Of a stretch of 64,000 nucleotides of DNA, positions 43,009 through 59,175 are shown piece after piece. Made by a program: the position numbers and the translations under genes. How positions within the stretch are numbered: position 1 is the first letter of the stretch; each line of letters starts with the position of its first letter. Under the pieces are notes generated by a model. That model ran no database searches and was not told the DNA's origin. It saw only the letters and a list, made by a program, of their open reading frames with translations. Source of the stretch: Calditrichia bacterium (lineage in GTDB: Bacteria > Calditrichota > Calditrichia > RBG-13-44-9 > J075); contig JANQQU010000030.1 of assembly GCA_028284905.1 (NCBI GenBank), forward strand, positions 62,001-126,000, read 5' to 3'.

Positions 43009-43025
43009 CGGTTGTGGGTATTGTT

Positions 43026-44060
43026 TTAATCTTTAAGATGATGAACGGATAACTTTGCTAAAATTTTTGTCGCATGTATGGCCCCGGCATCATTTAGATG
43101 ATTATGGTCAAACCGGTTCTCCGGCGCAAATAGTTCAGGGTATTCTGCTGGCAGGTTCATTTCAATTAGCGGGCAATCTATCTGGTTTACTTCAAGGTTT
43201 TTTATGATGAACTTTTTTTCTCCGTTCGCTGGTAAATTTATTAAAACAAGATTTACACCTCGACTTTTGCAATGGCTAATAATATTACTGAGAATTTGAA
43301 AGGCAGCTAATTGTGTCTGACGGTAATGATTCTGGTTCTTAATCATTAGTTTATGGGTACCGTTTAATCTCGCCTGGTAATCTTCTTGCCCTTCATGAGT
43401 TCTAAAAAAGTGATTCCAATTCTGAAAACCGTTGTTTCTACCTCTTCCTTCCGCATAGCCGGTATAGCTCTTCAATGTATCCGGATAACTTTTCTGCTGG
43501 AAAAAGAATGATTGCCAAATGTGTTTAAGTTCACCCGTCCGAAGAATATGTTTGGCAAATAAATTCAGGCGATCTCTGCTGAATCTAAGCTTTTGGCCAA
43601 TGGGATATGAAGTTTCCCAAATAGCCAGACACACTGTAAACGTTCGTTTAAGATCATGATAATTAATTATTCGGGAAGCGTTATGATTAGCAGAATTCAG
43701 GAATACCCAATAGTCATTAACTTCCAGGTAAATAGTATTCAGGTTTGTAAATTGCATTGTTAAAAGATTTTCCAGGACGTACTGTGTTTCAAGTAAATTC
43801 AATCCGGGTAAACCTAAGTTAAAAGATTTGGTCTGCTGATTATAATTAGCCATTAAACTATCGTAAAGATGAGGATCAATGCCACCATTAGTCATGCTAC
43901 TGCCAAGAAAGAGTGTATTTATCTCCGATAATTGCATTTCCAATGCAGTCATTTTTTTCTTGAAAGATCCGTCGGGAATTTTTCGCGTATCTTCCACATT
44001 ATTCATAATGAATAAAAAAATAAGACTAATAATTATGATGTTGCCGAATAGCTTTGCCAT
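43026..44060 (-). CDS. SGNH-like acyl-transfer partner protein D
   Basis: 344 residues with membrane anchor (about 7-22). LSEINTLFLGSSMTNGG holds the candidate Ser; FDHNHLNDAGA near the C-terminus holds Asp and His. It is unpaired: an MBOAT remnant, not an intact MBOAT, lies after it, and the UbiA gene lies 49 bases before it. It may serve one of the two intact MBOATs or act in another acylation step. Confidence 0.8.
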   Translation of the reverse strand: MAKLFGNIIIISLIFLFIMNNVEDTRKIPDGSFKKKMTALEMQLSEINTLFLGSSMTNGGIDPHLYDSLMANYNQQTKSFNLGLPGLNLLETQYVLENLLTMQFTNLNTIYLEVNDYWVFLNSANHNASRIINYHDLKRTFTVCLAIWETSYPIGQKLRFSRDRLNLFAKHILRTGELKHIWQSFFFQQKSYPDTLKSYTGYAEGRGRNNGFQNWNHFFRTHEGQEDYQARLNGTHKLMIKNQNHYRQTQLAAFQILSNIISHCKSRGVNLVLINLPANGEKKFIIKNLEVNQIDCPLIEMNLPAEYPELFAPENRFDHNHLNDAGAIHATKILAKLSVHHLKD

Positions 44061-44109: not shown

Positions 44110-45126
44110 TCAGCGTAATAGAGATAAAATTCTGGTATATATCGTGAGCCTCATCCATAGCATTCTGCGAAAAATGAGAAGATGCAGTGCCAGCATTGTG
44201 GCATAGAGCGGATTAAGAAGTAGCAGTTGAAATGCTAACAATAATGGCAACCAGGCGACATAAAATTCATTATCTACAAAAGGTAGATAACGTTCACTTT
44301 CCGGGGTTTCCGGAAAGAAATAGGTGAATTGCCATCCTCGCCACCATTTGCTTATTTCCAGTAAAGCAAAGCCACTAACAGCGAATCCTATTGGTGCTGA
44401 ATTGACAGTTAATAAACTAATAAAAGCAGCAAATGTAATCAGCTCTGCAGGGTAAGAAAACCACATTACGATGTTACGAATGTTCTTGCGGGATTTGCTG
44501 CCGGCAAAGGTAATCACATCGATTCTCTGATCGTCCTCGAGATCCAGCAATTGGTGATTAATAATTCCCCGAAAACCAACAAAGAAGGCCCAAATTGTCA
44601 TTGTAATCACGAGTAGCCAGCTATCGATGCCCGCGAGCGGTGCAAGCTGGGTAATTGTATAAGTAATAATAAGGGTCGGTAACATATGTGCTGCAGAGGT
44701 ATCGGCCAATACGCCGAGAATTCCCCGCTCTTTCCAGCGAATGGGGGGCACAGAATATAAAGTTGGCAGCAGGAAATTGGCAGCGTATAAAGATAACATA
44801 AGTGGGGTTGGATTAAGCAGTAAAAACACCGTAAAACCAATGAATAAACAAAACCCTAACAGGAAAAAGCGCATAAAGGGGGAGAGCTTCGCCATGGTGT
44901 TCTTTTTTCCGGCGGCGAGGTCCTGCTCAATATCAAAAATATCATTGATGATATAGCCGTAAGCGCCAACCATGCATATGCTGACAATGAGGATTGGCAA
45001 ACTAAACATCTTCGCTGAAAAAGGCAGATCATTAAGAAAGATGGTTGCATATCCAGCGGCCGCCAGGGGCGGGATTTTCCATTGAAACCATTCCGCGGTG
45101 CGGGCCAGATTATTTATAAATGACAT
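44110..45126 (-). CDS. UbiA-family prenyltransferase
   Basis: 338 residues, about nine membrane helices. NDIFDIEQD (about 61-69) is the first Asp-rich motif, and NHQLLDLEDDQRID (about 190-203) replaces the second with extra acidic residues. YSVPPIRWKERG near 124 fits the usual post-motif loop. Such enzymes attach a prenyl chain to an aromatic ring or sugar, and a few are terpene cyclases. In this cluster the aromatic or sugar acceptor is unknown. Its presence beside DxDD-barrel/P450 genes is the main hint for a terpenoid or meroterpenoid product. Its weak ribosome binding site follows the sulfotransferase by 52 bases. Confidence 0.88.
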   Translation of the reverse strand: MSFINNLARTAEWFQWKIPPLAAAGYATIFLNDLPFSAKMFSLPILIVSICMVGAYGYIINDIFDIEQDLAAGKKNTMAKLSPFMRFFLLGFCLFIGFTVFLLLNPTPLMLSLYAANFLLPTLYSVPPIRWKERGILGVLADTSAAHMLPTLIITYTITQLAPLAGIDSWLLVITMTIWAFFVGFRGIINHQLLDLEDDQRIDVITFAGSKSRKNIRNIVMWFSYPAELITFAAFISLLTVNSAPIGFAVSGFALLEISKWWRGWQFTYFFPETPESERYLPFVDNEFYVAWLPLLLAFQLLLLNPLYATMLALHLLIFRRMLWMRLTIYTRILSLLR

Positions 45127-45178: not shown

Positions 45179-45967
45179 CTAGTATTTAAATAAATAATTG
45201 GGGCTTGCGTCGCAATCGGCCAACTGCTTTTCAAATAGTTTTTTGGCAAAGTCATATAGTGCGACGTCGATATAATTTTTTTCGAGAATTGTCTGCCTGG
45301 TAGCTTCACTGATTGCATCTGCAGAAATCCGCAGCGGATTTTTATTGATGACCGCAATGGTTTTTTTCGGTATTTTTTTTCGGCTCACTGTCTCGAATAA
45401 ATGCAAAAAATCCGCATACCGTTCCATAATCCCAACTTTAATATTCAGATTCACTAACAGGGATTTTGCATATTCTAAATCTGCCTGCGCAATTATTTGC
45501 CCGGTACGGCTTTGCATATTTCCCAGCAGGAATTCGGTTTGCTTGTTCGGAGGTTCCGTTTCTATAAAATCTGTCAGCGTTTCTGGAAAGCGGCGGTTAT
45601 CGCTTTTATAGAGCGGTCGAATGGTATCTTGCTGCCACTGAAGATAGGAAAACAAGGAAAGCGTTTGTTCCAGGGGATTACGAAAGACAATATAAATGTT
45701 TGCACCGTGAAGCAGTTCCCAATGGCCGGGCTTCATAATCTCCTGGGTCATATAGGTAAATATTTCTTTATACGGCGCACCATGTAATTCAATACAATCG
45801 TAAGCGTTTAATTTTCGGCGAATGTTTCTCACCGTTGGTTTTATACAGAAATGAAACGAGCCGGGAAATACATCCTTTAAAATCTTCTGAAAGGTCATCC
45901 CGCCGGTTTTCGGTACATGAAGAAAAACATTTTTGGGGGTGTGACTTTTTCTCCGCCTTATCCACAT
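45179..45967 (-). CDS. Sulfotransferase (PAPS-dependent, Sulfotransfer_2 type)
   Basis: 262 residues. VFLHVPKTGGMTFQ at 14-27 is the 5'-phosphosulfate-binding loop and FRNPLEQTLSLF near 110 is the 3'-phosphate-binding region. It is very similar to the sulfotransferase encoded at 49246-50028, including the shared LNIKVGIMERY block. It should transfer sulfate from PAPS to a hydroxyl of the cluster's lipid, sugar or terpenoid. It lies 16 bases after the barrel-P450 fusion gene. Confidence 0.85.
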   Translation of the reverse strand: MWIRRRKSHTPKNVFLHVPKTGGMTFQKILKDVFPGSFHFCIKPTVRNIRRKLNAYDCIELHGAPYKEIFTYMTQEIMKPGHWELLHGANIYIVFRNPLEQTLSLFSYLQWQQDTIRPLYKSDNRRFPETLTDFIETEPPNKQTEFLLGNMQSRTGQIIAQADLEYAKSLLVNLNIKVGIMERYADFLHLFETVSRKKIPKKTIAVINKNPLRISADAISEATRQTILEKNYIDVALYDFAKKLFEKQLADCDASPNYLFKY

Positions 45968-45982
45968 TATTAATTGCCTGTT

Positions 45983-48322
45983 CTATGATGATTCAAAAAT
46001 CAACGCTAACCGTTTCAAAACACGTAATTGTAATACGTCAAAATATTCCAGTTCATCGATCCTCTGTGCGGCTTGAATACCTTTGAAACTTCTGAAAATT
46101 TCCTGAAGAGCGATTGCCGCTTCCATTCGGGATAGCTGGGCACCAATACAATAGTGGGGCCCGTAGCCAAACACCAGGCTGGTTCGAAAATTTCGATCAA
46201 TATTAAACTGATCCGGCTCGGGAAATTCCGCTTCATCCCGGTTCGCTGAGCCAATTAATGCAAAAACTTCTGCCCCGGCAGGAATTTTTACGCCGCTAAT
46301 TTCCGCTTCTTGTAAAGTGCGCCGGCGGACAAACTGTACTGGGGACTCATACCGCAAAACTTCTTCTACAAATGACGGAATCAGCGTCGGATTCTCCCGA
46401 ATTTGATCTATGAGATTTGGTTTTTTTAAAAGAACTAAAGCAGCGCTACCAATCAGGGATGTTGTTGTTTCGTGTCCGGCAGTAAATAATACCTTCGCAA
46501 GGTTTAAAGTCTGGTCCTTTGTAAAGGATTCCTTCTCAGAAAGTTGGGCGATAATATGGCCGAGCGTATCCCCATCCGGTTGCTGCTTAAAAATCTCAAG
46601 TTGCTTTTCAATAAACTCGAAAAATGAATCGAGGTCATCTGCGTATACTTTTTGTGCTGCCGGGCTAAGCGTACTCAATGTTACTAAAACAGCGGCATCG
46701 GACCAGCGCTTGTATTCTGCCAGGCGATCCGTCGGGAAACCCATTACTCCAGCAATAACTGCGATAGGCAGTGGGATTGCAAGGTCCGCAATTAGATCAC
46801 ATTGCCCAGCCGGTAGTACTTTGTTAATAAACAGACGGGTCTGGTTTTCAATCTCTGTACGGAATGCTTCAATCCGCTTCCGGTTGAAGGTTGCCGTAAA
46901 TGATTTTCGTACCCGTGGATGATCCGGGGCATCCGCCCCCAGCATAGTGCTTTCCATCGGGGCCATAATCGTCGATGAAAAAAGTGATGCATTTTTTAAG
47001 ACTGTTGCAACATCTCTGTGGCGGCTAATAATCCAGTGATCATGCGCTTTATTATAATAAATCGGGGCGCGATTCCGTAGCTCCCGATAATATGGATAGG
47101 GATTCTGGCGCAGTTTCGGATCGGAAATATCGAACTTGAAAGGAGATGAGCTAGTCTTTATCTGTGGTCGGGAGGAAGCCACATTTTTTTTCTGCCTAAT
47201 TTCCTGCTGCTTGTCTTCAGAAGGCGGAGAATTTTGAATTTCGTTCGCGCTAATGAGGTATTGCCGATAACGGGCCAGCGTTTCAATACAAAAAGCAGTG
47301 GTAAGTGCTTCCGAGCCCCAGAATTCAGTTGAGCCACTCTGAAAGGTAAATCGTTGCCAGGAACCGTTTTTTTCTTGATTCGCGAGAATAGATGCCACAG
47401 ACTTAGTGAGCGTGTTATTGTAAGCCTTAAAAGAGATTAGGGTGCAGGCAGCGAGGGCAGCGATTAAATCATTATCCCAATTCTCGTTTTCGGGATACCG
47501 CTGAACAATTCGTTCAACAATGTTCTTTTTCAGCGTACCCAGCGAAGGGGCACTGTGAAGAAAGGCCCGGGAAATCATATAATATAAAACGAAATTATCC
47601 GTATTAAAGGCGCTTGACTCGCCTTCCTGATTATTCGTGATGATATTTTTAACATAGTTGACCGAATCCCTGGTATCAGCACTCTCGCGGAGATATAGCA
47701 GTGTGCTGATATTGCTTCTGAGATCTATAGCGTCTGGAGAAACCGGCTCGGTTTTTGAGTGAAATCGGGGCGACTTGTAATATTTCTCTGGCTTGGCTGG
47801 AGTCCTGGTTTGCCATCGGGACACGACCCCGGCCAGGAGCAGAAGCGCTGATTGACTGAAATGAGTGAACGGCTTATACCGCGGGGTCAACCAGGTGCGA
47901 AAAATACCTTGCTCATTTTTATTCCGCAAAAAGAGGCTTTCATTTCGGGGAACAGTTCTGTTATACATTTTTAGAATGTATGCAGCGCAGGCGGTGTTAT
48001 CCAGATCGGGAGGAATCCGCCAATGTTTGAACTGACGCGAAGAATAATAACGCCACATCCCCGGCCATTCCATTTCGCTTTCCAGAAAGTCCAGCCCTTT
48101 TTGGATCATACCCGTAACCCGTTCATTCTCAATATACCGGAGGGCGTATAGTACGAAAGCGGTAACAAAGGGAGAACTATCCGGTTCACAATCCTGTTCT
48201 AGCTGCTCATCAGCAGCGAGGATTGTCGGGAATTCTCCATGGGGTAATTGATCCTGCGCCAGAAATGCTACTGCCTTGTCCAGTGCAGCATTTAAGGCGC
48301 CTATGTTAATAGAGGAAGCCAT
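45983..48322 (-). CDS. Fusion of DxDN squalene-cyclase-type barrel and cytochrome P450
   Basis: 779 residues. The N-terminal part (1-375) is an alpha/alpha-barrel-like domain related to prenyltransferase/squalene-cyclase repeats, with W-x(15)-PPDLDNTA at 104-111. This is the DxDD-type acid motif in which the last Asp is Asn (D106, D108, N109), and EKNGSWQRF is a QW-like repeat. A Q/K/S-rich linker of about 35 residues follows. The C-terminal part (about 395-779) is a complete bacterial P450 with AGHETTTS (I helix), EEVLRYESP (ExxR) and FGYGPHYCIGAQLSRME (heme Cys). Two other barrel-P450 gene pairs are adjacent, so the fusion is a natural joining of the same two partners. The reaction is unknown; oxidation of a barrel-bound terpenoid is the working idea. 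Confidence 0.85.
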   Translation of the reverse strand: MASSINIGALNAALDKAVAFLAQDQLPHGEFPTILAADEQLEQDCEPDSSPFVTAFVLYALRYIENERVTGMIQKGLDFLESEMEWPGMWRYYSSRQFKHWRIPPDLDNTACAAYILKMYNRTVPRNESLFLRNKNEQGIFRTWLTPRYKPFTHFSQSALLLLAGVVSRWQTRTPAKPEKYYKSPRFHSKTEPVSPDAIDLRSNISTLLYLRESADTRDSVNYVKNIITNNQEGESSAFNTDNFVLYYMISRAFLHSAPSLGTLKKNIVERIVQRYPENENWDNDLIAALAACTLISFKAYNNTLTKSVASILANQEKNGSWQRFTFQSGSTEFWGSEALTTAFCIETLARYRQYLISANEIQNSPPSEDKQQEIRQKKNVASSRPQIKTSSSPFKFDISDPKLRQNPYPYYRELRNRAPIYYNKAHDHWIISRHRDVATVLKNASLFSSTIMAPMESTMLGADAPDHPRVRKSFTATFNRKRIEAFRTEIENQTRLFINKVLPAGQCDLIADLAIPLPIAVIAGVMGFPTDRLAEYKRWSDAAVLVTLSTLSPAAQKVYADDLDSFFEFIEKQLEIFKQQPDGDTLGHIIAQLSEKESFTKDQTLNLAKVLFTAGHETTTSLIGSAALVLLKKPNLIDQIRENPTLIPSFVEEVLRYESPVQFVRRRTLQEAEISGVKIPAGAEVFALIGSANRDEAEFPEPDQFNIDRNFRTSLVFGYGPHYCIGAQLSRMEAAIALQEIFRSFKGIQAAQRIDELEYFDVLQLRVLKRLALIFESS

Positions 48323-48346
48323 GCGCTGTAAAAGATTAAATATTGG

Positions 48347-49249
48347 TTAGGAATTTTTAAAATACTTATGATACCGGGAAATGCAGGCCTGGGAACCATG
48401 CAACCACAGTTTATGAAGCGGAGTACGGGTCTTTTTTGCTAATTCCTCCCGAAAGCGGTTTGCCCAAACATCATTGATTGAATTTGCAAGCTTTTCCATA
48501 CTTATTTTTTGCTCCACAATTTGCGCCGGTATTGATATGTTAAAGGCGTTTGCAATCTTTAGCGCGGCTGTTTCTATCTCATTTTCAAAATCTTCATAGA
48601 ACAAGCGTAGCGGGTGAATATTTGCCCGAATAAAATACGCTTCCCAGGATTTTTCCTTCCGGATTAAAGATTGATAAAGATATAAAATTTGATAAAAATC
48701 ATACTTGATATTTGAATTGGTATCAGTGGTATAACGCTTGTCGTCGTAATTATAGTGCAGTATTTGGCTTTTGTGGAAAATGCCAGTCTGCAGTGCTTTT
48801 GCATAAGAAACAGCCTGGCGTATTTTATCCCTGCGCAGCCAGTATACGTAAAGGATGTCCGGAAAAACCATCGTTGGAATCTTTTCCGCGTCGATATTTT
48901 TTAATTGCGAAAAAGTACGCAAATTAATAATCATCTCTTCAAATTGTTCCCACATAATTTTCATGGAAAAGACGCCATTTTCTGTGGTCCCATCTTGAAA
49001 CACTTGTTTTGCATACATTGGCAGCGGTAACCGCCAACGCTGCAAATGAGCTGCTTCCATCCGCTGCGGCTCGAATTTCTGCCAATATAACTGAAGAAAA
49101 TATTCTTTCGGATAACCCAACAGGTGCGTCTGCTTAAGGGAAGTGGATAGAGCGGTACTGCCGGAACGTGGCGTCGTGCAAATGATTATCGATCGTGTCG
49201 GCTTATTTTCAACACCAATTTCTTTTAAGAATGTTTCTGCTTGGCTCAT
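48347..49249 (-). CDS. Stf0-type sulfotransferase
   Basis: 300 residues from ATG 49249, which overlaps the previous stop as ATGA and so is translationally coupled. IICTTPRSGSTALSTSL is the Stf0 PAPS-binding loop and LLGYPKEYF follows as in trehalose 2-sulfotransferase-type enzymes. VYWLRRDKIRQAVSYAKA near 165 is the second conserved block. Members sulfate glycosides, commonly trehalose or glycolipids, so this enzyme probably acts on a sugar of the product. It differs clearly from the two Sulfotransfer_2-type enzymes in the cluster. Confidence 0.86.
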   Translation of the reverse strand: MSQAETFLKEIGVENKPTRSIIICTTPRSGSTALSTSLKQTHLLGYPKEYFLQLYWQKFEPQRMEAAHLQRWRLPLPMYAKQVFQDGTTENGVFSMKIMWEQFEEMIINLRTFSQLKNIDAEKIPTMVFPDILYVYWLRRDKIRQAVSYAKALQTGIFHKSQILHYNYDDKRYTTDTNSNIKYDFYQILYLYQSLIRKEKSWEAYFIRANIHPLRLFYEDFENEIETAALKIANAFNISIPAQIVEQKISMEKLANSINDVWANRFREELAKKTRTPLHKLWLHGSQACISRYHKYFKNS

Positions 49250-50028
49250 ATAAATTGATACTCCGGACGTGAACCGCATTCGGCCAGCTGTTTTTCAAAT
49301 ATTTCCGTAGCGAACTTGTAAAGCGTTTTATCAAGATTGTTTCGCTCACGGATAATGGCTTTTAGCTCTTCACTGACGGCATCATATGGCAGTTGTTTAC
49401 GATGGCGGTTTTTTATTTCAATAGTACGATTGGGCAATGTGAGTCCGCTGAAGGTTTCAAAAATGTGCAGAAAATCTTCATACCTTTCCATGATGCCAAC
49501 CTTCATGTTTAATTCGACAAGCAACTCCATTGCATAGTCCAAATCTTTTTGCGTCGAACCCATTTCACCGGGCAACGGTATATTGCCAATTACACTGGCT
49601 GTCTGTTGATTAAAACTGGAAAATTTCATGTAATCTTCAAGTGTTATTGGGAAGGGAATCTCCCTTTTTCGATAGGTGTCTAACAAATCATCTTTTCTTT
49701 TGAGCGTATAATTAAAGCAGGAGAGATAGTGTGGCAGCGGGCTTCGGAACATGATAAAGATTTGTGTATCATTCAGCAGATGCCGGTTTTCCGGTTTTAA
49801 AATTTCCAACGTCATATATACCAGATCACCATTAAAAATATCGGCGTGAAATTCGATACAGCTGTATTTTTTCAGGCGCCTTTTAATACTTCCTAAGCGA
49901 GGATCCTTGCAATAATGAAATGAACCGGGAAAAAGTTCTTGCAGGAGATGCCGGAAAGTGGTGCCACCGGTTTTATGGATATGAATAAATATAATTGGTT
50001 TCTGTCGGTTCTTTTTTATAAACCACAT
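49246..50028 (-). CDS. Sulfotransferase (PAPS-dependent, Sulfotransfer_2 type)
   Basis: 260 residues, paralogue of the 45179-45967 enzyme (shared FPGSFH, LNMKVGIMERYEDFLHIFET and FEKQLA blocks). The PAPS loop is IFIHIHKTGGTTFR at 12-25. It overlaps the Stf0-type gene by four bases and follows a P450 gene by 14 bases. Two related enzymes may sulfate two positions of the same product. Confidence 0.85.
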   Translation of the reverse strand: MWFIKKNRQKPIIFIHIHKTGGTTFRHLLQELFPGSFHYCKDPRLGSIKRRLKKYSCIEFHADIFNGDLVYMTLEILKPENRHLLNDTQIFIMFRSPLPHYLSCFNYTLKRKDDLLDTYRKREIPFPITLEDYMKFSSFNQQTASVIGNIPLPGEMGSTQKDLDYAMELLVELNMKVGIMERYEDFLHIFETFSGLTLPNRTIEIKNRHRKQLPYDAVSEELKAIIRERNNLDKTLYKFATEIFEKQLAECGSRPEYQFI

Positions 50029-50042
50029 AAATGCCCGTATCC

Positions 50043-51227
50043 TTATTTCAGTTCAAAAAGTAAATCCAATTTTTGTGGTCTTCGAACACTTAAACTTTTA
50101 TTATAGACCAATTCTTCCAGGGCATGGGCACAGCGAAATGATTTTACCCGCTCAAAAAAAGCCTCTAGCGTAAGTCTGGCTTCCATGCGGGCCAAATGAA
50201 TGCCAATGCAATAATGCGGGCCGGTGCCGAATGCAAAATGCCCCCGGGGATTACGGGAAAGTAAGAATTTGTCCGGATCGGGAAATTGTGTTTCGTCCCG
50301 GTTGGCAGATCCCAGTAAAACCATTATCTTGCTGCCTTTCGGTATATCTTTTCCGGCAATTTTTACATCTTTTGTTGTGCAGCGAAAAACATATTGAGAA
50401 GGGGCATTGTAACGCAGCGCCTCTTCAATCATACCCGGGATCAACTCCGAATTAGCATGCAATGCCGATAGTATATCCGGTTTCTTTAAAAGCGTTACAA
50501 TCAGGTTGGCCAAAAAGTTGGTTGTTGTTTCACTGCCGGCGACTAATACGACCTTCATAAGCGCAGCAGTTTCTGCTATACTTAATCGATCGCTTTCTTC
50601 TTTTGTCAGAAAAACTTCATTGAAAGGGTTCTCTTGCTTTTTTTGACGATAGTCTGTTACGTGCTGCAGGCAGAATACATCTAGCTCACCGACTTCTCTT
50701 TCCAGTTTCTTTAGCTCTTTTGAGCGCATCGATTTGCCGATTGTTTCGAAGGCGACTGCATTAGACCAGCGAATATAGTCATCATAATAGGCCGGATCTA
50801 ATTTAAGTAATTTGATGACCAGGCTGACCGGAAAAGGTAAAGCAAGTCCATTAACAAAATCCCCGCTGCCACCCTCAGTTAATTCATCAACCATTTTTAG
50901 CGCCAATTCCCGGGCCCAATCTTCCAACCGCTGCAGCCGCTTTGGAGAAAATGCCTTGGAAATTCTTTGCCGTATGGAGGCATGATCCTGCAGATCTTTA
51001 TCGAAAATTGTATCCGGCATTTTAGTTACCAGGCCGACGGAAGAAAAATCTGCCGGATTTTTCAGAATCGCATTAACATCTTCATACCGTGATATTACCC
51101 AGAAACCATGTTTCTTAAAATAATGTACCGGGGAATGATGCCGTAATTCCTTGTATAATGGGTAGGGATTATTGTATCGCTCCGGGAGAAAAAAGTCCAT
51201 TTTATCAAGTTTTCTAAACCAATTCAT
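50043..51227 (-). CDS. Cytochrome P450 of a barrel-P450 pair
   Basis: 394 residues, full soluble bacterial P450. LVAGSETTTNF near 237 is the I-helix with acid-Thr pair (E, T), EEALRYNAPSQY near 278 is the ExxR region, and FAFGTGPHYCIGIHLARME near 334 is the heme loop. The gene follows the DxDD barrel gene by 10 bases, the same order as in the fused protein. It needs an electron donor (ferredoxin and reductase), none of which is in the cluster. It probably oxidises the terpenoid intermediate handled by the neighbouring barrel protein. Confidence 0.92.
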   Translation of the reverse strand: MNWFRKLDKMDFFLPERYNNPYPLYKELRHHSPVHYFKKHGFWVISRYEDVNAILKNPADFSSVGLVTKMPDTIFDKDLQDHASIRQRISKAFSPKRLQRLEDWARELALKMVDELTEGGSGDFVNGLALPFPVSLVIKLLKLDPAYYDDYIRWSNAVAFETIGKSMRSKELKKLEREVGELDVFCLQHVTDYRQKKQENPFNEVFLTKEESDRLSIAETAALMKVVLVAGSETTTNFLANLIVTLLKKPDILSALHANSELIPGMIEEALRYNAPSQYVFRCTTKDVKIAGKDIPKGSKIMVLLGSANRDETQFPDPDKFLLSRNPRGHFAFGTGPHYCIGIHLARMEARLTLEAFFERVKSFRCAHALEELVYNKSLSVRRPQKLDLLFELK

Positions 51228-51236
51228 GCCTTTCCC

Positions 51237-52340
51237 TTATCTCTTGCAATTTTCCAGAATGATTTTCAGTGCAGAAATGCAGCTGGCGGTGGTAACGACG
51301 TTGTGGACGTCTTTTGCGATTAATACATCATCTGCAGCTTCATAAAAGTGCCAGATTGTTTCCGTACTTTTCCAGGCACCGTCGCTATCTTGATTTTTTA
51401 ATATGTAATCTATTCCCCGGGCAAGATGCTCATCGACTGGGGTATGCCTTCCCAACGCCTGCAGCGCTAATCCGGAATTATATGGATCGCCCCAACTGCC
51501 ATCCGCCATTTGTTGCTGATGTAAAAAACGAATCGTTTTTTCTATTTCATTTTCAAAACCCGGTAATTGTGCCAGTAATTCCATAAAGCTGTTGCTGCCA
51601 AAATATTTCCCCGGGTAAAAATATGAATACCAGTAACCTTCCGGTGCCTGGCACCGCCGTATCAACTTTGGATTGATGTATTCTTCATAATCCGTACCAA
51701 GCAGCATTAAGAAAAAATTTGCATTGACTTCCGGGTGCATTTCAAAATTGTTGCCGGGGCTTGGTTCGGTGACCAGATGATAGTTGCTGCGAGTGCCGAA
51801 TCTTGAAAATCCTTTTTCTCTTTTATCACGAATTTCCTTATTACTGAAAGGATCATAAATAGCGGTTCCCTTTCGAACGGTCGGAAATGTTATGAACCCT
51901 TTTTCCAGGTGAATACCCTTGTTGGTGAACCTGAGTGACTTACGGTAGAAGATCGGTAAACAATCGAGCGGCTTAAAATTATTCAGCTTGCGGATGGTTC
52001 TTAAGGCCATAATTGTGTCATCTGCATCTATATACGGATAATTCGTTGGACCTTTAAAATATTTGCCGGCAGAATATCCCCAGGCACCGTTTAATTCCTC
52101 GGAATGGATTCTCATTAGTACCAATGCCCGCTCGGATTCGCTCAAATCTTCCCCAATTGCTTTGGTGAGAAAGAAGTTGCTGAATAGATGCCCCTTTTCG
52201 TCTGAAAAAAATAAATTGCCAGCGGAATCGAAACAGGAAAGTCCGCATTTACCTGCCACCAGCTGGCGCTTCAGGAAATCGGTGCCAGCCTGTATTGCTG
52301 TTGTTAATTTGTCTACTGCCAGGGTATGAAGCGTTTTCAT
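51237..52340 (-). CDS. DxDD-containing squalene-cyclase-type alpha/alpha-barrel protein
   Basis: 367 residues, no signal peptide. NGAWGYSAGKYFKG then PYIDADDTIMAL (D105, D107, D108, T109) reproduce the GGW...DVDDTA block of class II terpene cyclases, whose middle Asp is the catalytic acid. Further QW-like repeats come at MADGSWGDPYNSGLAL (about 288) and DSDGAWKSTETIW (about 325). At about 370 residues it is roughly half of squalene-hopene cyclase, i.e. one barrel rather than two. Whether it cyclises alone, as a heterodimer with the paralogous barrel, or only binds a prenyl chain, is unknown. It precedes a P450 by 10 bases. Confidence 0.82.
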   Translation of the reverse strand: MKTLHTLAVDKLTTAIQAGTDFLKRQLVAGKCGLSCFDSAGNLFFSDEKGHLFSNFFLTKAIGEDLSESERALVLMRIHSEELNGAWGYSAGKYFKGPTNYPYIDADDTIMALRTIRKLNNFKPLDCLPIFYRKSLRFTNKGIHLEKGFITFPTVRKGTAIYDPFSNKEIRDKREKGFSRFGTRSNYHLVTEPSPGNNFEMHPEVNANFFLMLLGTDYEEYINPKLIRRCQAPEGYWYSYFYPGKYFGSNSFMELLAQLPGFENEIEKTIRFLHQQQMADGSWGDPYNSGLALQALGRHTPVDEHLARGIDYILKNQDSDGAWKSTETIWHFYEAADDVLIAKDVHNVVTTASCISALKIILENCKR

Positions 52341-52468
52341 TCAGGAACCTTGGATATTTCTCTTAACGGCGAGCGGTAATTGCAGGAAGTGGTCTCTTTG
52401 CGTTTAAGGAATGGGAAATACTCATAAAATCTCATTTCGGAAAATTATTTAGCCTTAATTCTGCGTAA

Positions 52469-53656
52469 TTAATTATGGAATATTTTCAGTTTTAGCTCTC
52501 GTAACCCTCGCACCTGTACCGTATCATGACGTTTCTGCGGTTGATCCGGGACGAGTTGAAAATCTGCAATCCGGGAGAAAAGTATATTGCAAGCAATCCG
52601 TGCTTCCAGGCGGGAAAGATGCAGGCCAAAGCAATAATGAGGGCCGGCGCCAAAAGCAATATGTTTACGGGTGTTTCGATTTACAGAAAAAGTATCCGGA
52701 TCCGGAAATACTTCGGCATCCCGGTTGGCAGCACCTATCAGGAGAAAAACCTGCGCACCGGCGGGAATCGTTACATTGTCTATCGTAATCGCCTGTGTTG
52801 TGTAGCGCTGAACAAATTGGGTTGGGGATTCATAGCGAAGCACTTCTTCCAGCATTTGGGGAATTAGTTCTGGATTATTTCGAACCAGGGCAAACTCATC
52901 GGGAAATTTAAGTAAATTTACCATTGCATTGGTTAGTAAATTTGTGGTTGTTTCGTAACCGCCGACCAGGATCAATTTTCCCATATTTGCTGCTTCCTGC
53001 AAGGAAACGCTCATCCGATTATTTTTATCGAATAATGCATCGTTAAGAATACAATCCTTTGGAGATTCCATCATTTGAGAGAAGTGCGCTTCAAAAAAAT
53101 CATGGAATTTTTTTTCATAGGTTCTTGTAGCTTCCTGGCTAAAGGTTTTGATCTTTACGCCGGAAGCCGCGTCGGACCAAATCATATAATCTTTCATGCC
53201 GGCCGGATCAATACCAACAATTTCTGAAATTACCCGCATCGGCAATGGGGAAGCTAAAGACTCAACGAAATTAACAGTTTGTTTACCCTTCCATTGATCG
53301 ATTAACAAATTAGTTTGCTCAGCGATAAATGATTCCAGTTCAGCCATGCGGCGAGCTGTAAATGCCGGCATTACCTTTTTACGAATCTCAGTATGATTCG
53401 GTGGATCTTCCCCGATCAGGGTCTGATTTTCGAAAGGTACAATACCTTTCGAGGAATATAACTCCGGATGTTTTAAGGCATAAGAAACATCTTCATATCG
53501 GCTGAGCGCCCAACATTGATCATTTGGGAAATAGTGAACCGGGGCATTCTCCCGTAGATATTGATAAAACGGATAAGGATCCAGGCGAACTTCATCGGAA
53601 AAAAAACTAAGCTTTAAGGGACTGCGGAATTTATTCATAAATTGTTTAATCTTCAT
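52469..53656 (-). CDS. Cytochrome P450 of a second barrel-P450 pair
   Basis: 395 residues. VGGYETTTNLL near 240 (I helix; the usual Ala/Gly is Gly-Tyr here), EEVLRYESPTQFV near 278 (ExxR) and IAFGAGPHYCFGLHLSRLE near 338 (heme Cys) identify a bacterial P450. The start overlaps the end of the barrel gene upstream by 11 bases, so the pair is translationally coupled. Sequence similarity to the other two P450s of the cluster suggests a common origin by duplication. Confidence 0.92.
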   Translation of the reverse strand: MKIKQFMNKFRSPLKLSFFSDEVRLDPYPFYQYLRENAPVHYFPNDQCWALSRYEDVSYALKHPELYSSKGIVPFENQTLIGEDPPNHTEIRKKVMPAFTARRMAELESFIAEQTNLLIDQWKGKQTVNFVESLASPLPMRVISEIVGIDPAGMKDYMIWSDAASGVKIKTFSQEATRTYEKKFHDFFEAHFSQMMESPKDCILNDALFDKNNRMSVSLQEAANMGKLILVGGYETTTNLLTNAMVNLLKFPDEFALVRNNPELIPQMLEEVLRYESPTQFVQRYTTQAITIDNVTIPAGAQVFLLIGAANRDAEVFPDPDTFSVNRNTRKHIAFGAGPHYCFGLHLSRLEARIACNILFSRIADFQLVPDQPQKRHDTVQVRGLRELKLKIFHN

Positions 53657-54653
53657 TTTTTGCTCCTGAAAAATTTTTGATTGCCGAGAGGCAAAGTGAA
53701 GTAGTTACAATGTGATTTGTATCTTTAGCTTGCCAAACATCTTCATTTTGACCATAAAATTCCCAGATTATCCGCTCACTAAGCCAGGCGCCATCAGTCT
53801 GTTGAGTTTTTAAAAGAAACTCGATGCCTTTGTGAATTTGTTTGTTGGGAGGGCAATAGAGCAGCAAGCATTTTAGCGCAAGGGCGGTTTCGTAACAATC
53901 ACTATTGCTTCCCCAGGAGCCATCATCATTCTGGCTCTCTTGCAGAAACTGAATACCTCGTTCCTTGCTTTGCGGCAGCTTATCAAAGTGGCTCAGCAGA
54001 CTGAGGAATTGGTAAGTCGAAAAATATTTACCGGGATAGAAATAGGAATGCCAATACCCATGTGGAGACTGCGAACGGGCGATTAGATCGAAATTAATAT
54101 ACTTTTCAAAGTTGGTATCGAAGAGGGTATGATAAACATTGGCATTCACTTCCGGGTGAATATGGAAGTTGTTCTTTTCGCAAGGTTTGATGACCAGGTG
54201 CGGGCGCTTGCCTGTGGCGAAGGTGACAAAACCTTTTTCCCACCAGCGATCTTGACCTGGCCATTGCCATTTCGAACGGTAAAAATGCAGTAAGCGATCC
54301 GGCGATTTATAGACCTTGAGCTTACGGTAGGTGCGGAGGGCAAAGGCGCTGTCGTCAGCATCAACAAAGTGTGGGTTATCCTCCGGCCCCTTGTAATAAC
54401 CGCGGGGCGAGTATCCCCAAAAGCCTTCATGCTCTTCGGTAAGCAGGCGCATGAGCAGCACCGCGCGTTCGACTTCGCTCAATTCATCTGCGATGGCTTC
54501 CGCAATAAAAAATGCGCTGAACAAATGACCCCTGTCGTTGGAAAAGCGAGGAGTGCCATCCGATCCGAAACAGGAAAGGCCATACTGACCAGCGCGCAAC
54601 TGTTGTTTGATAAAGATGATGCCACTTTTTACAGCAGTATTAATGTTTCTCAA
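53646..54653 (-). CDS. DxDD-containing squalene-cyclase-type alpha/alpha-barrel protein (second copy)
   Basis: 335 residues when read from TTG 54653 (AAAGAG six bases upstream). The frame is open further but there overlaps the glycosyltransferase and lacks homology to its paralogue. WGYSPRGYYKGP then HFVDADDSAFAL is the class II cyclase acid motif with Ser instead of Thr, and QNDDGSWGSNSD with QQTDGAWLS are QW-like repeats. HPEVNANV and HSYFYPGKYF match the first barrel (PEVNANFF, YSYFYPGKYF). The product chemistry is as for the first copy. The overlap with the P450 gene that follows suggests coupled expression. Confidence 0.8.
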   Translation of the reverse strand: MRNINTAVKSGIIFIKQQLRAGQYGLSCFGSDGTPRFSNDRGHLFSAFFIAEAIADELSEVERAVLLMRLLTEEHEGFWGYSPRGYYKGPEDNPHFVDADDSAFALRTYRKLKVYKSPDRLLHFYRSKWQWPGQDRWWEKGFVTFATGKRPHLVIKPCEKNNFHIHPEVNANVYHTLFDTNFEKYINFDLIARSQSPHGYWHSYFYPGKYFSTYQFLSLLSHFDKLPQSKERGIQFLQESQNDDGSWGSNSDCYETALALKCLLLYCPPNKQIHKGIEFLLKTQQTDGAWLSERIIWEFYGQNEDVWQAKDTNHIVTTSLCLSAIKNFSGAKNED

Positions 54654-55866
54654 GAAATGCTCTTTTATTAATAAATTGTTGATAATTCTCTGCAGATTTT
54701 TCGGCAATGCGGATATCGGTAAATTTTCTCTCAATCGTTTCCCGGGCTGCAGTTCCCAATTTATTTCGCAGGTTTTTATCTTCAATAAACCGTGCCAATT
54801 GTTTTGTATAATCCTCCGGGTTCTCTCCGGCGGCAAGTAAACCATTGGCTTCATCTTCGATCAACTCCGGTAGCCCGCCCTGCTTGGCAGCGACAATCGC
54901 TCGTCCCGCAGCCATTGCTTCCAGGCAGCTGTAGGGGCAATTTTCCCAGAGACTGGGAATCAGGAAAATATCGGTCTGGCGCATCGCCGAGCGCATATCC
55001 CGCATTCCCAATTTGCCGAGATAGTGCACCGTCCCTTTTAAAGGTTTACCGGCTAAATGTGGTAGTAAGGTTTTCGCCATATAACCATCGTCATCTGCCC
55101 CGGCGAAAACGAAATCGACATCATACTTGCTTAAAATTTTCTCGGCAATTTCCGGACAAAGGTGGACCCCTTTCCGGCGTTCCATTCGGGCGGCAAAAAG
55201 AATCATCGGCCGATCTTTTCGCAAACCAAATTTTTGACGAAAATCGATTTGATCGGTAGCATCGAAGAGATCCAAATCGATGCCATTGGGAATCACCCCA
55301 ATGTTTTTTCGGACGCCCATTTTTTCCTTTACATCCTGCCGTAGATAGGTTGAGCAGGCATTTAAGGCGGTTGCATTGCTTATTGCCCGCCCTTCCAGAG
55401 CGGAACAAAGCTTTATTTCTGCGCTGGAAAGATGAGAAAAATGACCAATGAGCGCCACCGGTCCATGGAATTTGATAAAGGTTGGTGTAGCAATACGATG
55501 ATTGAGAAAAAATCCTTCCGCGCCGCAATCGGGCATTTCCATTGCATCATAGCGATAGTTTTTCGCCAGGCGGTCGAAGAGATGGCGCATGGAAAGAGCA
55601 TTTTCTATCCGCCCCTTTGCCCACCAGTAGCGAAAGGGATAAAGCGGGCGCAGCATCCACTGCCAGGGATTGGCAATCTTATAACGAAAAATTCTTACAC
55701 CGTCTACTTCACTATCTTTCCTGTCTCCGGGGTTGACTGCACCGGCGAGCACATGAACGGTATGGCCAAGCTTTACCAGGGCCCGTGCCTGGTACCAGGT
55801 GTAGGTGCCAATACCGCCAAAGCCGGTATCGGGAGGGAACTCGTATGATAGTAAGGCAATATTCAT
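54640..55866 (-). CDS. GT4-family glycosyltransferase
   Basis: 408 residues, two Rossmann domains. The N-terminus is SYEFPPDTGFGGIGTYT with the GT-B acceptor-side glycine loop. FAARMERRKGVHL near 220 and PSLWENCPYSCLEAMAAG near 292 carry the GT4 donor-binding Glu pair. It retains configuration and uses a nucleotide sugar, likely at the cytosolic face. Its 3' end overlaps the barrel gene by 14 bases, and the larger GT4-GT2 fusion lies 12 bases upstream, so all are one transcript. It probably glycosylates the cluster's lipid or terpenoid. Confidence 0.9.
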   Translation of the reverse strand: MNIALLSYEFPPDTGFGGIGTYTWYQARALVKLGHTVHVLAGAVNPGDRKDSEVDGVRIFRYKIANPWQWMLRPLYPFRYWWAKGRIENALSMRHLFDRLAKNYRYDAMEMPDCGAEGFFLNHRIATPTFIKFHGPVALIGHFSHLSSAEIKLCSALEGRAISNATALNACSTYLRQDVKEKMGVRKNIGVIPNGIDLDLFDATDQIDFRQKFGLRKDRPMILFAARMERRKGVHLCPEIAEKILSKYDVDFVFAGADDDGYMAKTLLPHLAGKPLKGTVHYLGKLGMRDMRSAMRQTDIFLIPSLWENCPYSCLEAMAAGRAIVAAKQGGLPELIEDEANGLLAAGENPEDYTKQLARFIEDKNLRNKLGTAARETIERKFTDIRIAEKSAENYQQFINKRAFLEKH

Positions 55867-55877: not shown

Positions 55878-58082
55878 TTAGTGGCTGAAAATTCGCTTAA
55901 GGCGAGTGCTAAAATTGAACAGCGGATCGATAATTTTTCGACCAAGGTTGCCGCGCAGGCGATCCAATAAATCCAGCAATCGGAGATGATCTATATGGAG
56001 CGAATGAGCAATGCGGGATTCGCTGAGCAGTAACATCTCCGAATATTGCGTGTTCAGTTTGCATGGCAAATGAGAAAGCATTATTCGGCGCATATTGAGG
56101 TGTTCATCAATGTTTTTGCTAATGTTTCTCTGGGCATCGCCCGGACAGCTGCCGATAATTTCCGGGAGAGTTACCGCCTGCCAGCCATTAGTGATAATTC
56201 GATTGAAAAGGTCCCAGGTTTCATATCCGCTAACAAGATCCGGGGAGAAACCATCTGTTTCCTGTAGCGCCTCGGTGCGGATAATGCTGATTGACGCTAA
56301 CTCGTTTTTCAACCACTGATAGGGAAACGCCGGATTAGGAAATGTCTTTAAGTGTTTTGCTTTGGCGTCGTTATAAAACCAACCGGAGATGAGTCCGATT
56401 TTCGGGGAGTGTTGCAATATTTTCTGGCCGGTTAACAGAAAGCCGGCTGACAGTCGGTCGCCCGGGTTGAGGAAAACCACCCCTGCCGGAGGAATTTCCA
56501 GGGAAAGAATTGCTTCGAGCGCTGCATTTTTGGCTTGAATCGCGGTAGCGCCGGGCAGATTAATTAACTGTATGTGCTTGTTTCCTGCAGTCAGATGGCC
56601 TGATAGCGGCTGTAGAGCAGTATTGACAAAAATTATGCTGGAGTAATGTTGTTGCTGATCTTGTAAGTGCTGAAGAGTTTGCCGAAGCGACTTTTCGGAC
56701 CCACCGATTACAGTAATTGCAATACTACTTGTAACGGCAGGCACTTCCTTGATTTTTTCCGGTTTTTCGGAATGTATTCCGTTTTGCAGCATGCCGTTAA
56801 CGATCATCTCAGTTTGCTGGCGATTGTAACGGTCAATCACTTCTGCCCGAAAGGCAAGGTGCTGATCCAGGACTGTTGCTGTATCACATTTCCTACGAAT
56901 CGCCTCTGCTGCGTGTGCCCCCATTGTGGCTAATTGCTGTGGTTCAGTTTCCAAAGCGCGTTGCAGGGCTGCGGCCAAAAGGTGACTGTCTGCCCGTTCT
57001 ACCAGCCAGCCGGAGCGGTTATCTTCGATCATCTCCGCCATACCGCCAGTGCGGGTGGCAATTACCGGTAAGCCGGAGGACATCGCCTCGATGCAGGTGT
57101 TTGGGAAATTTTCCCAGCGGGAGGGCACCACAGCGATGCGGGCCTTTGCTAAAAGTGCAGGAATCGCCGAGCGCTGTTGTTCGCCTAAAAAATTGAAACG
57201 GGTGCGATAATCTGCCGGTATCATGCGGTCCAGCAGTTCCGGGCCACTGATCTCATTATCGCCGAGCTCGTTGCTGCCGATAAATTGAAAAGAAGCATTT
57301 GGGTTTTCCCGGGCAATGGTAAGTGCACCTTCGATCCATTCCAGCACCCCTTTTCGCTCTTCCAGGCGGCCAACATAACAGATCTCGCCATTTTCCCAGG
57401 TGGCATTATTGCGGGCTTGATGCGGAAATTCGCTGACTGGCAAAGGGATTACCCGAATCGCATCATTACTCAATTGAAATTGATCGGCAATCTGATCCGC
57501 CAGAAATTGGCTGGGGCAAAGCAGGCCGTCCGCCCGGTTAATGCTAAAATCCTCCAACCGTTTCGCCGTTTGATAAAACGGGTGACCGATATCGCTGCCG
57601 TTATTTCTGGCGACAATTTCAGTGGACGTATGGAGATGCACAACAATTGGCGGTTGGGGAGACGGCCCTAAACCGAGCATACGCCGTAGCTGTAAATAAT
57701 AAAGCGGCGCTTCAAACTCCTGCCCTTCGATAATATCGATGTTTTCTGCCACGATCAATTTTTCTGCCAGCAGGCAAGCCTGCCAGGCGAAGGATTGGGG
57801 GGAATAGCCGTTTTGGAAAAGCGCACGGTCCGGCACTCGCTTTAACTGTGGATGCGGCCTGCTGTGCGGTGCGCTGGTATGATGATCATAAGGTATTCGA
57901 TGAATCATCAACCGTCCGTTGCAACGGGTCTCCAATGCCTGCGCTGCTGACCGGCAGGATTGTGCAATAACATGAACTGTTTCGCCATGTGCTGCCATAA
58001 TACGGGAGATATTTTCCGCATAAGTAGCGATACCGCCTCCGACCGCCGGAGGAAACTCTCGACAGATGATTAGATGCTTCAT
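55878..58082 (-). CDS. Fused GT4 and GT2-like glycosyltransferase
   Basis: 734 residues. The first part (1-410) is a GT4 enzyme: REFPPAVGGGIATYAENIS at the start, YVGRLEERKGVLEWIEGA near 236 and PSRWENFPNTCIEAMSSG near 318. The second part (about 450-690) is a GT2/GT-A-like domain with SSIAITVIGGSEKSLRQTL and VVFLNPGDRLSAG in place of the DxD region, so its divalent-metal site is changed (PGD). ETWDLFNRIITNGW is the later acceptor motif. One polypeptide may add two sugars, or the second domain may only bind. No shine-dalgarno is obvious; the start at 58082 is the only in-frame ATG near the conserved N-terminus. Confidence 0.85.
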   Translation of the reverse strand: MKHLIICREFPPAVGGGIATYAENISRIMAAHGETVHVIAQSCRSAAQALETRCNGRLMIHRIPYDHHTSAPHSRPHPQLKRVPDRALFQNGYSPQSFAWQACLLAEKLIVAENIDIIEGQEFEAPLYYLQLRRMLGLGPSPQPPIVVHLHTSTEIVARNNGSDIGHPFYQTAKRLEDFSINRADGLLCPSQFLADQIADQFQLSNDAIRVIPLPVSEFPHQARNNATWENGEICYVGRLEERKGVLEWIEGALTIARENPNASFQFIGSNELGDNEISGPELLDRMIPADYRTRFNFLGEQQRSAIPALLAKARIAVVPSRWENFPNTCIEAMSSGLPVIATRTGGMAEMIEDNRSGWLVERADSHLLAAALQRALETEPQQLATMGAHAAEAIRRKCDTATVLDQHLAFRAEVIDRYNRQQTEMIVNGMLQNGIHSEKPEKIKEVPAVTSSIAITVIGGSEKSLRQTLQHLQDQQQHYSSIIFVNTALQPLSGHLTAGNKHIQLINLPGATAIQAKNAALEAILSLEIPPAGVVFLNPGDRLSAGFLLTGQKILQHSPKIGLISGWFYNDAKAKHLKTFPNPAFPYQWLKNELASISIIRTEALQETDGFSPDLVSGYETWDLFNRIITNGWQAVTLPEIIGSCPGDAQRNISKNIDEHLNMRRIMLSHLPCKLNTQYSEMLLLSESRIAHSLHIDHLRLLDLLDRLRGNLGRKIIDPLFNFSTRLKRIFSH

Positions 58083-58251: not shown

Positions 58252-59175
58252 TTACAAAAGATTCAACACCCGGAGCATGTAGCCTCCGGCAAAGCGAATA
58301 TTATAGCGGCAGAACATAATCGGTTTGCGCTTTGCAAACGGGGAGAAAAAGATGATTGCAACCAGGTAAAAAAGGACATTGGCAAATTTGCGCATAAAGG
58401 TAAATGCTATCTTCGGCTTGGAGGCGTATTTCTGGTCGATTGCCGCATCGGACAATCCCTGTCCAAGGGCGCGCTTAAAAAACCATTTTTCATTAAGCTT
58501 TTCCGGGGAAATGACATGTTTTACAACAGCCTGCGGCACATATACTACTTTCTTACCGGCGCTTTCCAGCCGAAGATTCATTTCCGTTTCTTCTCCGGAA
58601 ATCATCGTTCCATTGCTGGACCAGCCTAGTTGATTGGAAAATCCTCCGATTTCTTGCAGGTTCTTTTTGCGATAGGAAATATTCGCGCCCCAGGGGTAAT
58701 GGGGATAGCGGAGGCTGGAGACTTCATTGAATTTGAAGCGGGTAATGCCAAGGGGGGGGAGCAGAAAGCTCGGTAGCCAGGTTGGTCGGATACCTTCCGG
58801 CCACTCCGGGGAAAGGTCTCCACCGGCCACGGCTACATGGGGATCCTCATAAACTGCGGCAATATTCGCTGCCCAGTGATCACTAACTGGAATGGCATCG
58901 TCATCAATAAAGATGATGACATCTCCCTGCGCTTTTTTTAAGGCAAGATTGCGTGCATTAGACAATCCGGATTTTTCTTCATAAAAGTAGTGCAGTGGAA
59001 TGGGGCTGTCCGTTTGCAGCGACTCTGTTATTTGGCGCGTATTGTCGCTGGAGCAATTATCAACCACCAAAACTTCTAATTTCCCCCGTGTATATTGTTG
59101 CTTTAATACGGCTGAAATTGTAGCATAGAGGCTTTGTGCCCGATTGTGAGTACAGATAGCTATCGAAATATTCAT
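58252..59175 (-). CDS. GT2-family glycosyltransferase
   Basis: 307 residues. ISIAICTHNRAQSLYATI at the N-terminus, VVDNCSSDNT near 40, GLSNARNLALKKAQGDVIIFIDDDAIP near 70-100 (DxD-type metal site) and SGEETEMNLRLESAG near 200 define a GT2 inverting enzyme. Two hydrophobic stretches near the C-terminus (VLFYLVAIIFF) suggest membrane association. It is separated from the GT4-GT2 fusion by the tandem repeats and from the upstream SGNH E gene by 502 bases, so it probably starts its own transcript. Confidence 0.9.
   Translation of the reverse strand: MNISIAICTHNRAQSLYATISAVLKQQYTRGKLEVLVVDNCSSDNTRQITESLQTDSPIPLHYFYEEKSGLSNARNLALKKAQGDVIIFIDDDAIPVSDHWAANIAAVYEDPHVAVAGGDLSPEWPEGIRPTWLPSFLLPPLGITRFKFNEVSSLRYPHYPWGANISYRKKNLQEIGGFSNQLGWSSNGTMISGEETEMNLRLESAGKKVVYVPQAVVKHVISPEKLNEKWFFKRALGQGLSDAAIDQKYASKPKIAFTFMRKFANVLFYLVAIIFFSPFAKRKPIMFCRYNIRFAGGYMLRVLNLL

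What the first reader, a model, noticed from the sequence alone, without database searches (positions are those of the whole stretch)
45983..54653. Three barrel-P450 modules, one fused: a possible undescribed oxidative cyclase unit
Two barrel genes each directly precede a P450, and a third barrel is fused to a P450 in the same order. All three barrels keep the GxW ... D-x-D block seen in class II terpene cyclases (DADDT, DADDS and DLDNT), but each is about half the size of squalene-hopene cyclase. Fusion is strong evidence that barrel and P450 work together. Single-barrel DxDD proteins tied to P450s are not a system I know.
Basis: partly seen in the sequence, partly recalled or inferred. Interest (0 to 1): 0.76.

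Follow-up and report, generated by a model that had tools for sequence, protein, structure and literature searches.

The report
Single-barrel terpene cyclases paired with P450s
Three small enzymes that look like terpene-ring-forming cyclases, each tied to an oxidising P450, belong to a recurring and apparently undescribed bacterial gene module that also holds a membrane prenyltransferase and is often set among sugar-transfer, sulfation and export genes, so it probably builds an unknown oxidised, sugar- or sulfate-decorated terpenoid.

Summary
Barrels A and B (both DADD) each abut a P450; barrel C (DLDN) is fused to one. Sequence profiles and an AlphaFold model (pLDDT 90) place barrel C with class II terpene cyclases. 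Its nearest solved relative is the cyclase domain of drimenol synthase AsDMS (Z 32.8; profile E 2e-22), and C's D108 aligns with AsDMS's catalytic D333. A and B belong to a separate cyclase lineage near SHC-like enzymes.

Barrel C homologues in five other phyla sit beside or are fused to P450s (12 of 22 clade loci) and, above all, UbiA prenyltransferases (18 of 22). Fusions include barrel-P450, P450-barrel, glycosyltransferase-barrel-P450, barrel-UbiA and PhyH-UbiA-barrel. Sulfotransferases, glycosyltransferases and Wzm/Wzt-type exporters recur nearby.

Best reading: a UbiA, single-domain class II cyclase and P450 pathway making an exported terpenoid conjugate. Reaction, order, acceptor and product are inferred, not shown. 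I found no description of the module in the open-access papers searched. New variant of a known kind.

The parts
53646..54653 (-). Barrel A: single-domain class II terpene-cyclase-like protein, DADDS motif (ORF extends to 54854; TTG start at 54653 likely)
   Evidence: PF13243 E 1.1e-9 over cut-off; nearest PDB sequence 8pak, single-domain SHC-like, E 2e-11; start
52469..53656 (-). P450-A, heme Cys and ETT I-helix motif intact
   Evidence: PF00067 E 4e-31; motifs
51237..52340 (-). Barrel B: single-domain class II terpene-cyclase-like protein, DADDT motif
   Evidence: PF13243 E 5.5e-8 over cut-off; AF2 pLDDT 69, best structural matches SsDMS, 8paj, SHC, MstE at Z 21-23
50043..51227 (-). P450-B, motifs intact
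   Evidence: PF00067 E 1.4e-35; motifs
49246..50028 (-). Sulfotransferase-like protein
   Evidence: Sulfotransfer_2 E 0.005, below the curated cut-off; 43% identical to 45179-45967
48347..49279 (-). Stf0-type sulfotransferase
   Evidence: PF09037 E 1.1e-36
47231..48322 (-). Barrel C domain of the fusion: AsDMS-like class II cyclase domain, DLDNT motif, D106/D108
   Evidence: AF2 pLDDT 90.4; AsDMS Z 32.8, rmsd 2.4 over 290; family profile vs AsDMS E 2.3e-22
45983..47155 (-). P450 domain of the fusion (P450-C), motifs intact
   Evidence: PF00067 E 2.8e-29; motifs
45179..45967 (-). Sulfotransferase-like protein
   Evidence: Sulfotransfer_2 E 0.03, below the curated cut-off; paralogue of 49246-50028
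44110..45126 (-). UbiA prenyltransferase with both Asp motifs (NDIFDIEQD, DLEDD): the constant partner of barrel C homologues elsewhere
   Evidence: PF01040 E 4.9e-13; linkage; motifs
54640..55866 (-). GT4-type glycosyltransferase directly upstream of barrel A
   Evidence: overlaps the barrel A ORF; grouped with GT4 genes
55878..58082 (-). GT4 glycosyltransferase
   Evidence: PF00534 E 7e-29
58252..59175 (-). GT2 glycosyltransferase; homologues next to barrel C relatives in L010 and L097
   Evidence: PF00535; clustering

Best explanation
The three barrels are single-domain (beta-domain) class II terpene cyclases that work with P450s and a UbiA prenyltransferase in one terpenoid pathway. Proposed mechanism: UbiA (44110-45126) attaches a polyprenyl chain (C15 or C20) to an acceptor. 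A barrel then folds the chain in its alpha/alpha-barrel cavity and the middle Asp of DxD(D/N) (B D107, C D108) protonates the terminal double bond, or an epoxide, to start ring closure. The paired P450 oxidises the product, and sulfotransferases and glycosyltransferases decorate it. Barrel C belongs to the recurring module; A and B are a second cyclase lineage serving the same cluster. Shown computationally: homology, predicted fold, catalytic-Asp alignment, intact P450 and UbiA motifs, and linkage and fusion across phyla. Inferred: activity, substrate, order of steps, acceptor and product.
For: Family profile A5 matches AsDMS across the domain at E 2.3e-22, with PPDlDDT aligned to FPDDLDTT; AsDMS D333, the middle Asp, is essential for cyclization (PMC9128629). 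AF2 model of C: pLDDT 90; top structures are all class II cyclases, Z 23-33, with non-cyclase toroids at or below 20.7. A/B over the PF13243 cut-off. DxD is invariant in 22 aligned barrels, including four whose sequence could not have matched the DxDD search pattern (L020, L023, L025, L026). Within the 23-row clade of C, UbiA lies within the fetched stretch in 18 of 22 other loci and P450 in 12; a 19th UbiA lies 17 kb away on L020's contig. Six new strong hits from unpatterned profile searches: 5 UbiA-linked. Control toroid loci: UbiA 1 of 12 (weak), P450 0 of 12. In G045 and G046 the only PF00067 match in the genome is the P450 fused to the barrel. Both UbiA Asp motifs conserved in all 25 UbiA rows.
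Against: No activity data. No prenyl-diphosphate synthase or clear acceptor-making enzyme is identified in the window. Some UbiA-barrel loci have no P450 or PhyH nearby (L012, L015, L016, L022, L101, L102), so oxidation is optional. C has DxDN, which is rare (also L102); its activity is unproven. Barrel B's model is of moderate confidence. A/B-type barrels were found paired with P450s only in this window.
Confidence: 0.72

Rival explanations
1. Reverse order: the barrel first cyclises free FPP or GGPP to a bicyclic diphosphate, as AsDMS does, and UbiA then uses that cyclic diphosphate as donor. UbiA takes the place of the HAD phosphatase of AsDMS.
For: Barrel C is closest to AsDMS, which acts on FPP; UbiA-barrel fusions parallel the HAD-TC fusion.
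Against: MstE-type enzymes act after prenylation; no test here separates the two; no diphosphate-binding site was examined.
Confidence: 0.3
2. P450 first: the P450 epoxidises the terminal alkene and the barrel opens the epoxide, which could explain the DxDN of barrel C (a weaker acid is needed for an epoxide, as in oxidosqualene cyclases).
For: Direct P450 fusion and DLDN in C; P450s of A, B and C keep heme Cys and ETT.
Against: DVDN also occurs in L102, which has no P450 nearby; most P450-fused homologues keep DxDD; AstC works on FPP with DxDT (PMC13244436), so loss of the fourth Asp does not imply an epoxide.
Confidence: 0.15
3. The barrels are glycan-acting alpha/alpha toroids (epimerase, lyase or glucuronyl hydrolase type) in a polysaccharide cluster, and the Asp motif is coincidental.
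For: Glycosyltransferase/sulfotransferase surroundings; cellobiose epimerase and GH105 share the fold at Z about 17-20.
Against: Sequence hits to solved structures are led by terpene cyclases; a clear Z gap for C; UbiA linkage and fusion; invariant DxD.
Confidence: 0.06
4. The barrels are catalytically dead scaffolds that present a prenylated substrate to the P450 or UbiA.
For: DxDN in barrel C; frequent fusion; a helper role is not excluded by homology.
Against: DxD invariant in 22 of 22 aligned barrels; A and B keep full DxDD.
Confidence: 0.07

Closest known systems
Drimenol synthase AsDMS and HAD-TC cyclases (AsDMS, AncC, AstC)
   Same: Closest solved fold and sequence to barrel C (Z 32.8; profile E 2.3e-22); single beta domain; DLD motif with the catalytic middle Asp aligned
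   Different: No HAD phosphatase domain on the window barrels; fused instead to a P450 here and to UbiA elsewhere; motif DLDNT rather than DxDTT
MstE, merosterolic acid synthase of Scytonema (monodomain class II cyclase)
   Same: Stand-alone ~365-aa beta domain; acts on a prenylated acceptor (GG-DHB); similar fold to C (Z 27.5)
   Different: Not the closest sequence or fold; sulfotransferases, glycosyltransferases and P450 fusion as seen here are not part of what I read about it
Single-domain SHC-like proteins 8paj (Archangium) and 8pak (Cystobacter), and 6ij1 (Actinoplanes)
   Same: Best PDB sequence matches of barrel A (8pak, 8paj, E 1e-10 to 2e-11); same size and single-domain build
   Different: Their function was not found here; only ~31-34% identical to barrel A over the aligned C-terminal part
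Squalene-hopene cyclase
   Same: Beta-domain fold, DxDD, QW-like repeats; Pfam SQHop_cyclase_C hit for A and B
   Different: Half the size, no gamma domain, far below the NCBIfam hopene_cyclase cut-off
Bacterial class II cyclase plus P450 diterpene clusters (e.g. Streptomyces plasmid L011)
   Same: Cyclase next to P450s
   Different: There with a class I terpene synthase and a polyprenyl synthetase, no UbiA, no fusion; the cyclase ORF is ~532 aa rather than a single ~360-aa barrel

Membership tests
Class II terpene cyclase (beta domain) | alpha/alpha-barrel beta-domain fold | tested here: met
   C: Z 23-33 to class II cyclases. B: Z 18.6-22.7, moderate model
Class II terpene cyclase (beta domain) | DxDD-type general-acid motif at the catalytic position | tested here: met
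   A, B DxDD; C DxDN with the middle Asp aligned to AsDMS D333
Class II terpene cyclase (beta domain) | Protonation-initiated cyclisation of a prenyl chain | not testable with these tools
   needs enzyme assay
Squalene-hopene cyclase | beta-gamma two-domain architecture, ~630 aa | tested here: not met
   335-367 aa, one barrel
Squalene-hopene cyclase | NCBIfam hopene_cyclase cut-off (431 bits) | tested here: not met
   12.7-27.6 bits
HAD-TC drimenol synthase (AsDMS-like) | TC domain homology | tested here: met
   barrel C family profile E 2.3e-22
HAD-TC drimenol synthase (AsDMS-like) | N-terminal HAD phosphatase domain with DDxxE | tested here: not met
   barrel begins at residue ~7 of the fusion; Pfam finds only P450 and barrel-type hits
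HAD-TC drimenol synthase (AsDMS-like) | DxDTT motif | tested here: not met
   DLDNT in C, DADDT and DADDS in B and A
MstE-type monodomain cyclase | single beta domain as a whole protein | tested here: met
   A and B
MstE-type monodomain cyclase | acts on UbiA-prenylated aromatic acceptor | not testable with these tools
   UbiA is linked but the acceptor is unknown
MstE-type monodomain cyclase | closest relationship to MstE by sequence | tested here: inconclusive
   E 0.04 for A/B and 0.005 for the C family; other cyclases score better
Cytochrome P450 | heme-ligand Cys in FxxGxxxCxG, ExxR, I-helix acid-alcohol pair | tested here: met
   all three window P450s
UbiA prenyltransferase | NDxxDxxxD and DxxxD motifs, Pfam UbiA | tested here: met
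   E 4.9e-13, both motifs

The most novel reading that the evidence does not exclude
A previously undescribed, cross-phylum class of biosynthetic module in which UbiA and an AsDMS-like single-domain cyclase, usually with a P450 or PhyH oxygenase, build a cyclised terpenoid that is attached to, or caps, a sulfated or glycosylated surface glycan or glycolipid exported by a Wzm/Wzt-type ABC transporter. That would be terpenoid-decorated surface glycans in bacteria.
Probability: 0.25. Interest if true: 0.82.

Novelty: new variant of a known kind. Interest (0 to 1): 0.62.

Why it matters
The barrel C family gets no reliable domain call (e.g. no NCBIfam hit for the Novosphingobium member; weak or no PF13243), so genome-mining tools that rely on such models may miss these clusters. 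The module links three enzyme classes by repeated gene fusion and occurs in at least six phyla counting the window's own. It gives a concrete, testable route to new oxidised terpenoid conjugates, and ready-made barrel-P450 and barrel-UbiA fusions for studying hand-over of intermediates. The frequent glycosyltransferase, sulfotransferase and exporter neighbours raise the question whether bacteria attach cyclised terpenoids to surface glycans.

Tried and rejected
First genome-contig scan with barrels A+B found no relatives, as did a viral-contig scan: A/B-type barrels remain without close relatives in what was searched. Own-phylum search (40 genomes) with barrel B found only this genome. Considered and rejected: 'three copies of one unit' (A/B and C are different lineages); 'SHC homologue' (far below cut-off, one domain); glycan-acting toroid; P450s as heme-less glycosyltransferase activators (TIGR04515 was hit, but the heme Cys is present). 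P450 tree: window A, B and C group together (89/88), but module P450s of other phyla do not form one supported clade, so a single origin of the pairing was not shown. Literature searches for UbiA with terpene cyclase, sulfotransferase or polysaccharide returned nothing describing the module; only open-access PMC papers were searched, so absence is not proof. The MstE paper itself was not held. The presence of HAD phosphatases near the module was not tested.
Full report
What is there. On the - strand between 61.7 and 32 kb lies a run of genes: glycosyltransferases (58252-59175, 55878-58082, 54640-55866), barrel A, P450-A, barrel B, P450-B, two sulfotransferase-type genes, the barrel C-P450 fusion, a third sulfotransferase-like gene and a UbiA prenyltransferase, followed by SGNH-like, MBOAT, AMP-ligase, FAD-enzyme, O-methyltransferase and carrier-protein genes.

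Are the barrels terpene cyclases? A and B exceed Pfam's cut-off for SQHop_cyclase_C and their best solved-structure sequence matches are single-domain SHC-like proteins and SHC. Barrel C alone is invisible to phmmer against the PDB. Once 22 homologues were aligned, its family profile matched drimenol synthase AsDMS over nearly the whole cyclase domain at E 2.3e-22, with the family's PPDlDDT on AsDMS's FPDDLDTT. The middle Asp of AsDMS, D333, is required for cyclization (PMC9128629) and corresponds to window C D108. AlphaFold gave a confident model of C (pLDDT 90, pTM 0.91), whose best structural matches are AsDMS (Z 32.8, rmsd 2.4, 290 aligned), single-domain 8paj, MstE, 6ij1 and SHC (Z about 27); sugar epimerases and glycoside hydrolases of the same general fold stay at or below Z 20.7. 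Barrel B's model is weaker (pLDDT 69) but ranks class II cyclases first too, with a smaller margin over sugar enzymes (22.7 against 18.6). Profile comparison aligns A/B with C at E 7e-20, DADD on DLDN.

How general is the linkage? A tblastn of barrel A against plasmids hit a Nostoc protein that proved to be PhyH oxygenase-UbiA-barrel-TPR in one chain, homologous to both barrel C and the window UbiA. A scan of 84,980 species genomes with an alignment of barrel C, the Nostoc and the Novosphingobium barrels gave 21 loci in Cyanobacteriota, Acidobacteriota, Verrucomicrobiota, Pseudomonadota, Bacteroidota, Chloroflexota and others. Because that scan used motif patterns, I added profile searches without patterns over 387, 386, 395 and 398 genomes of four phyla. 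They gave six further strong members, five of them beside or fused to UbiA; the sixth lies 1.8 kb from a contig end. A maximum-likelihood tree puts barrel C in a 23-row clade (support 88/97). Of the 22 other members, 18 have UbiA and 12 have a P450 in the fetched stretch, and only two have neither, both near contig ends. L020's UbiA turned up 17 kb away. Members outside the clade, such as the Chloroflexota ones, mostly lack both. Control loci with other toroids had UbiA in 1 of 12 (weak) and P450 in 0 of 12. Background is low: about 49 UbiA matches in roughly 57 Mb over ten carrier genomes, under 2% per 20 kb. In two Bacteroidota carriers the genome's only P450 match is the one fused to the barrel.

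Fusions. Barrel-P450 (window); glycosyltransferase-barrel-P450 (L018, L021, L024); P450-barrel, the opposite order (L028-L030); barrel-UbiA (L015, L022); PhyH-UbiA-barrel (L010, L097). Opposite orders require at least two fusion events. A FabD/PKS-type acyltransferase domain is a further occasional partner, fused to UbiA (L018, L021) or P450 (L020, L103) or standing nearby (L017, L023). Recurrent neighbours are GT4 enzymes, sulfotransferases and Wzm/Wzt-type exporters. The smallest clean set is L102: acyltransferase, ABC exporter, glycosyltransferase, barrel, UbiA, glycosyltransferase, with no P450.

Mechanism. UbiA partners keep both Asp motifs in all 25 rows, and the window P450s keep heme Cys, ExxR and the I-helix ETT, so both are likely active enzymes. 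I propose prenylation by UbiA, class II ring closure by the barrel, P450 oxidation, then sulfation and glycosylation. The order is not shown. AsDMS cyclises FPP itself, whereas MstE cyclises a prenylated dihydroxybenzoate (PMC9401909); either precedent could hold. DxDN in C does not argue for inactivity, since AstC works with DxDT (PMC13244436) and L102 independently carries DVDN; it leaves open an epoxide-opening role, which would fit the fused P450.

A and B versus C. A and B are sisters in a different part of the tree, with SHC-like proteins, while the three window P450s group together (89/88, A and B sisters). So P450s seem to have duplicated locally and been paired with two cyclase lineages. 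This A/B pairing was not found elsewhere, and the scans for A/B relatives were poor, so its generality is untested.

Novelty. Single-domain class II cyclases are known, as are cyclase-P450 clusters. What I could not find described is the UbiA-barrel-oxygenase module, its fusions, and its glycosyltransferase/sulfotransferase/exporter setting (open-access papers only). I file it as a new variant of a known kind.

Noticed in passing
window 32208-44060: A Dlt-like acyl-transfer set: AMP-ligase 37799-39286, carrier protein 34927-35193 (PF00550), MBOATs 33285-34760 and 40354-41850, several SGNH/DltD-like genes, interleaved with a CmlS-like FAD enzyme 36391-37779 and an O-methyltransferase 35264-36298. 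It may make and transfer an unusual acyl group.
   Followed up: partly
L017 6999-7997; L018 12255-14624; L020 1570-3789; L021 4373-6862; L023 10669-11808; L103 11393-13639: FabD/PKS-type acyltransferase domain recurrently linked or fused to UbiA or P450 in barrel C modules.
   Followed up: partly
L013 11254-14580; L014 12001-13059: Module-type UbiA without a barrel in the fetched stretch: methyltransferase-UbiA-PhyH fusion in Oscillatoria, and UbiA with GTs, radical SAM, AsnB, polyprenyl synthetase, Wzm/Wzt, PhyH and sulfotransferase in Methylomagnum.
   Followed up: no
L018, L019, L020, L021, L024, L103, L109 P450 domains: I-helix acid of the acid-alcohol pair is replaced (V/A/T before T) although the heme Cys is kept, which hints at a non-classical P450 reaction.
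   Followed up: no
L031, L032, L035: Chloroflexota barrel homologues with PPDLDDT but without UbiA or P450 nearby; partner unknown.
   Followed up: no
L022 9875-12889: Barrel and UbiA joined by a spacer of repeated 'GVDAxWYLxxYPD...NPLVHYLRHG' units.
   Followed up: no
window 16395-19730 and 25607-29761: Large secreted proteins ending in NYPNPFNP-type C-terminal sorting segments, of the kind seen with type IX secretion (assignment from general knowledge).
   Followed up: no
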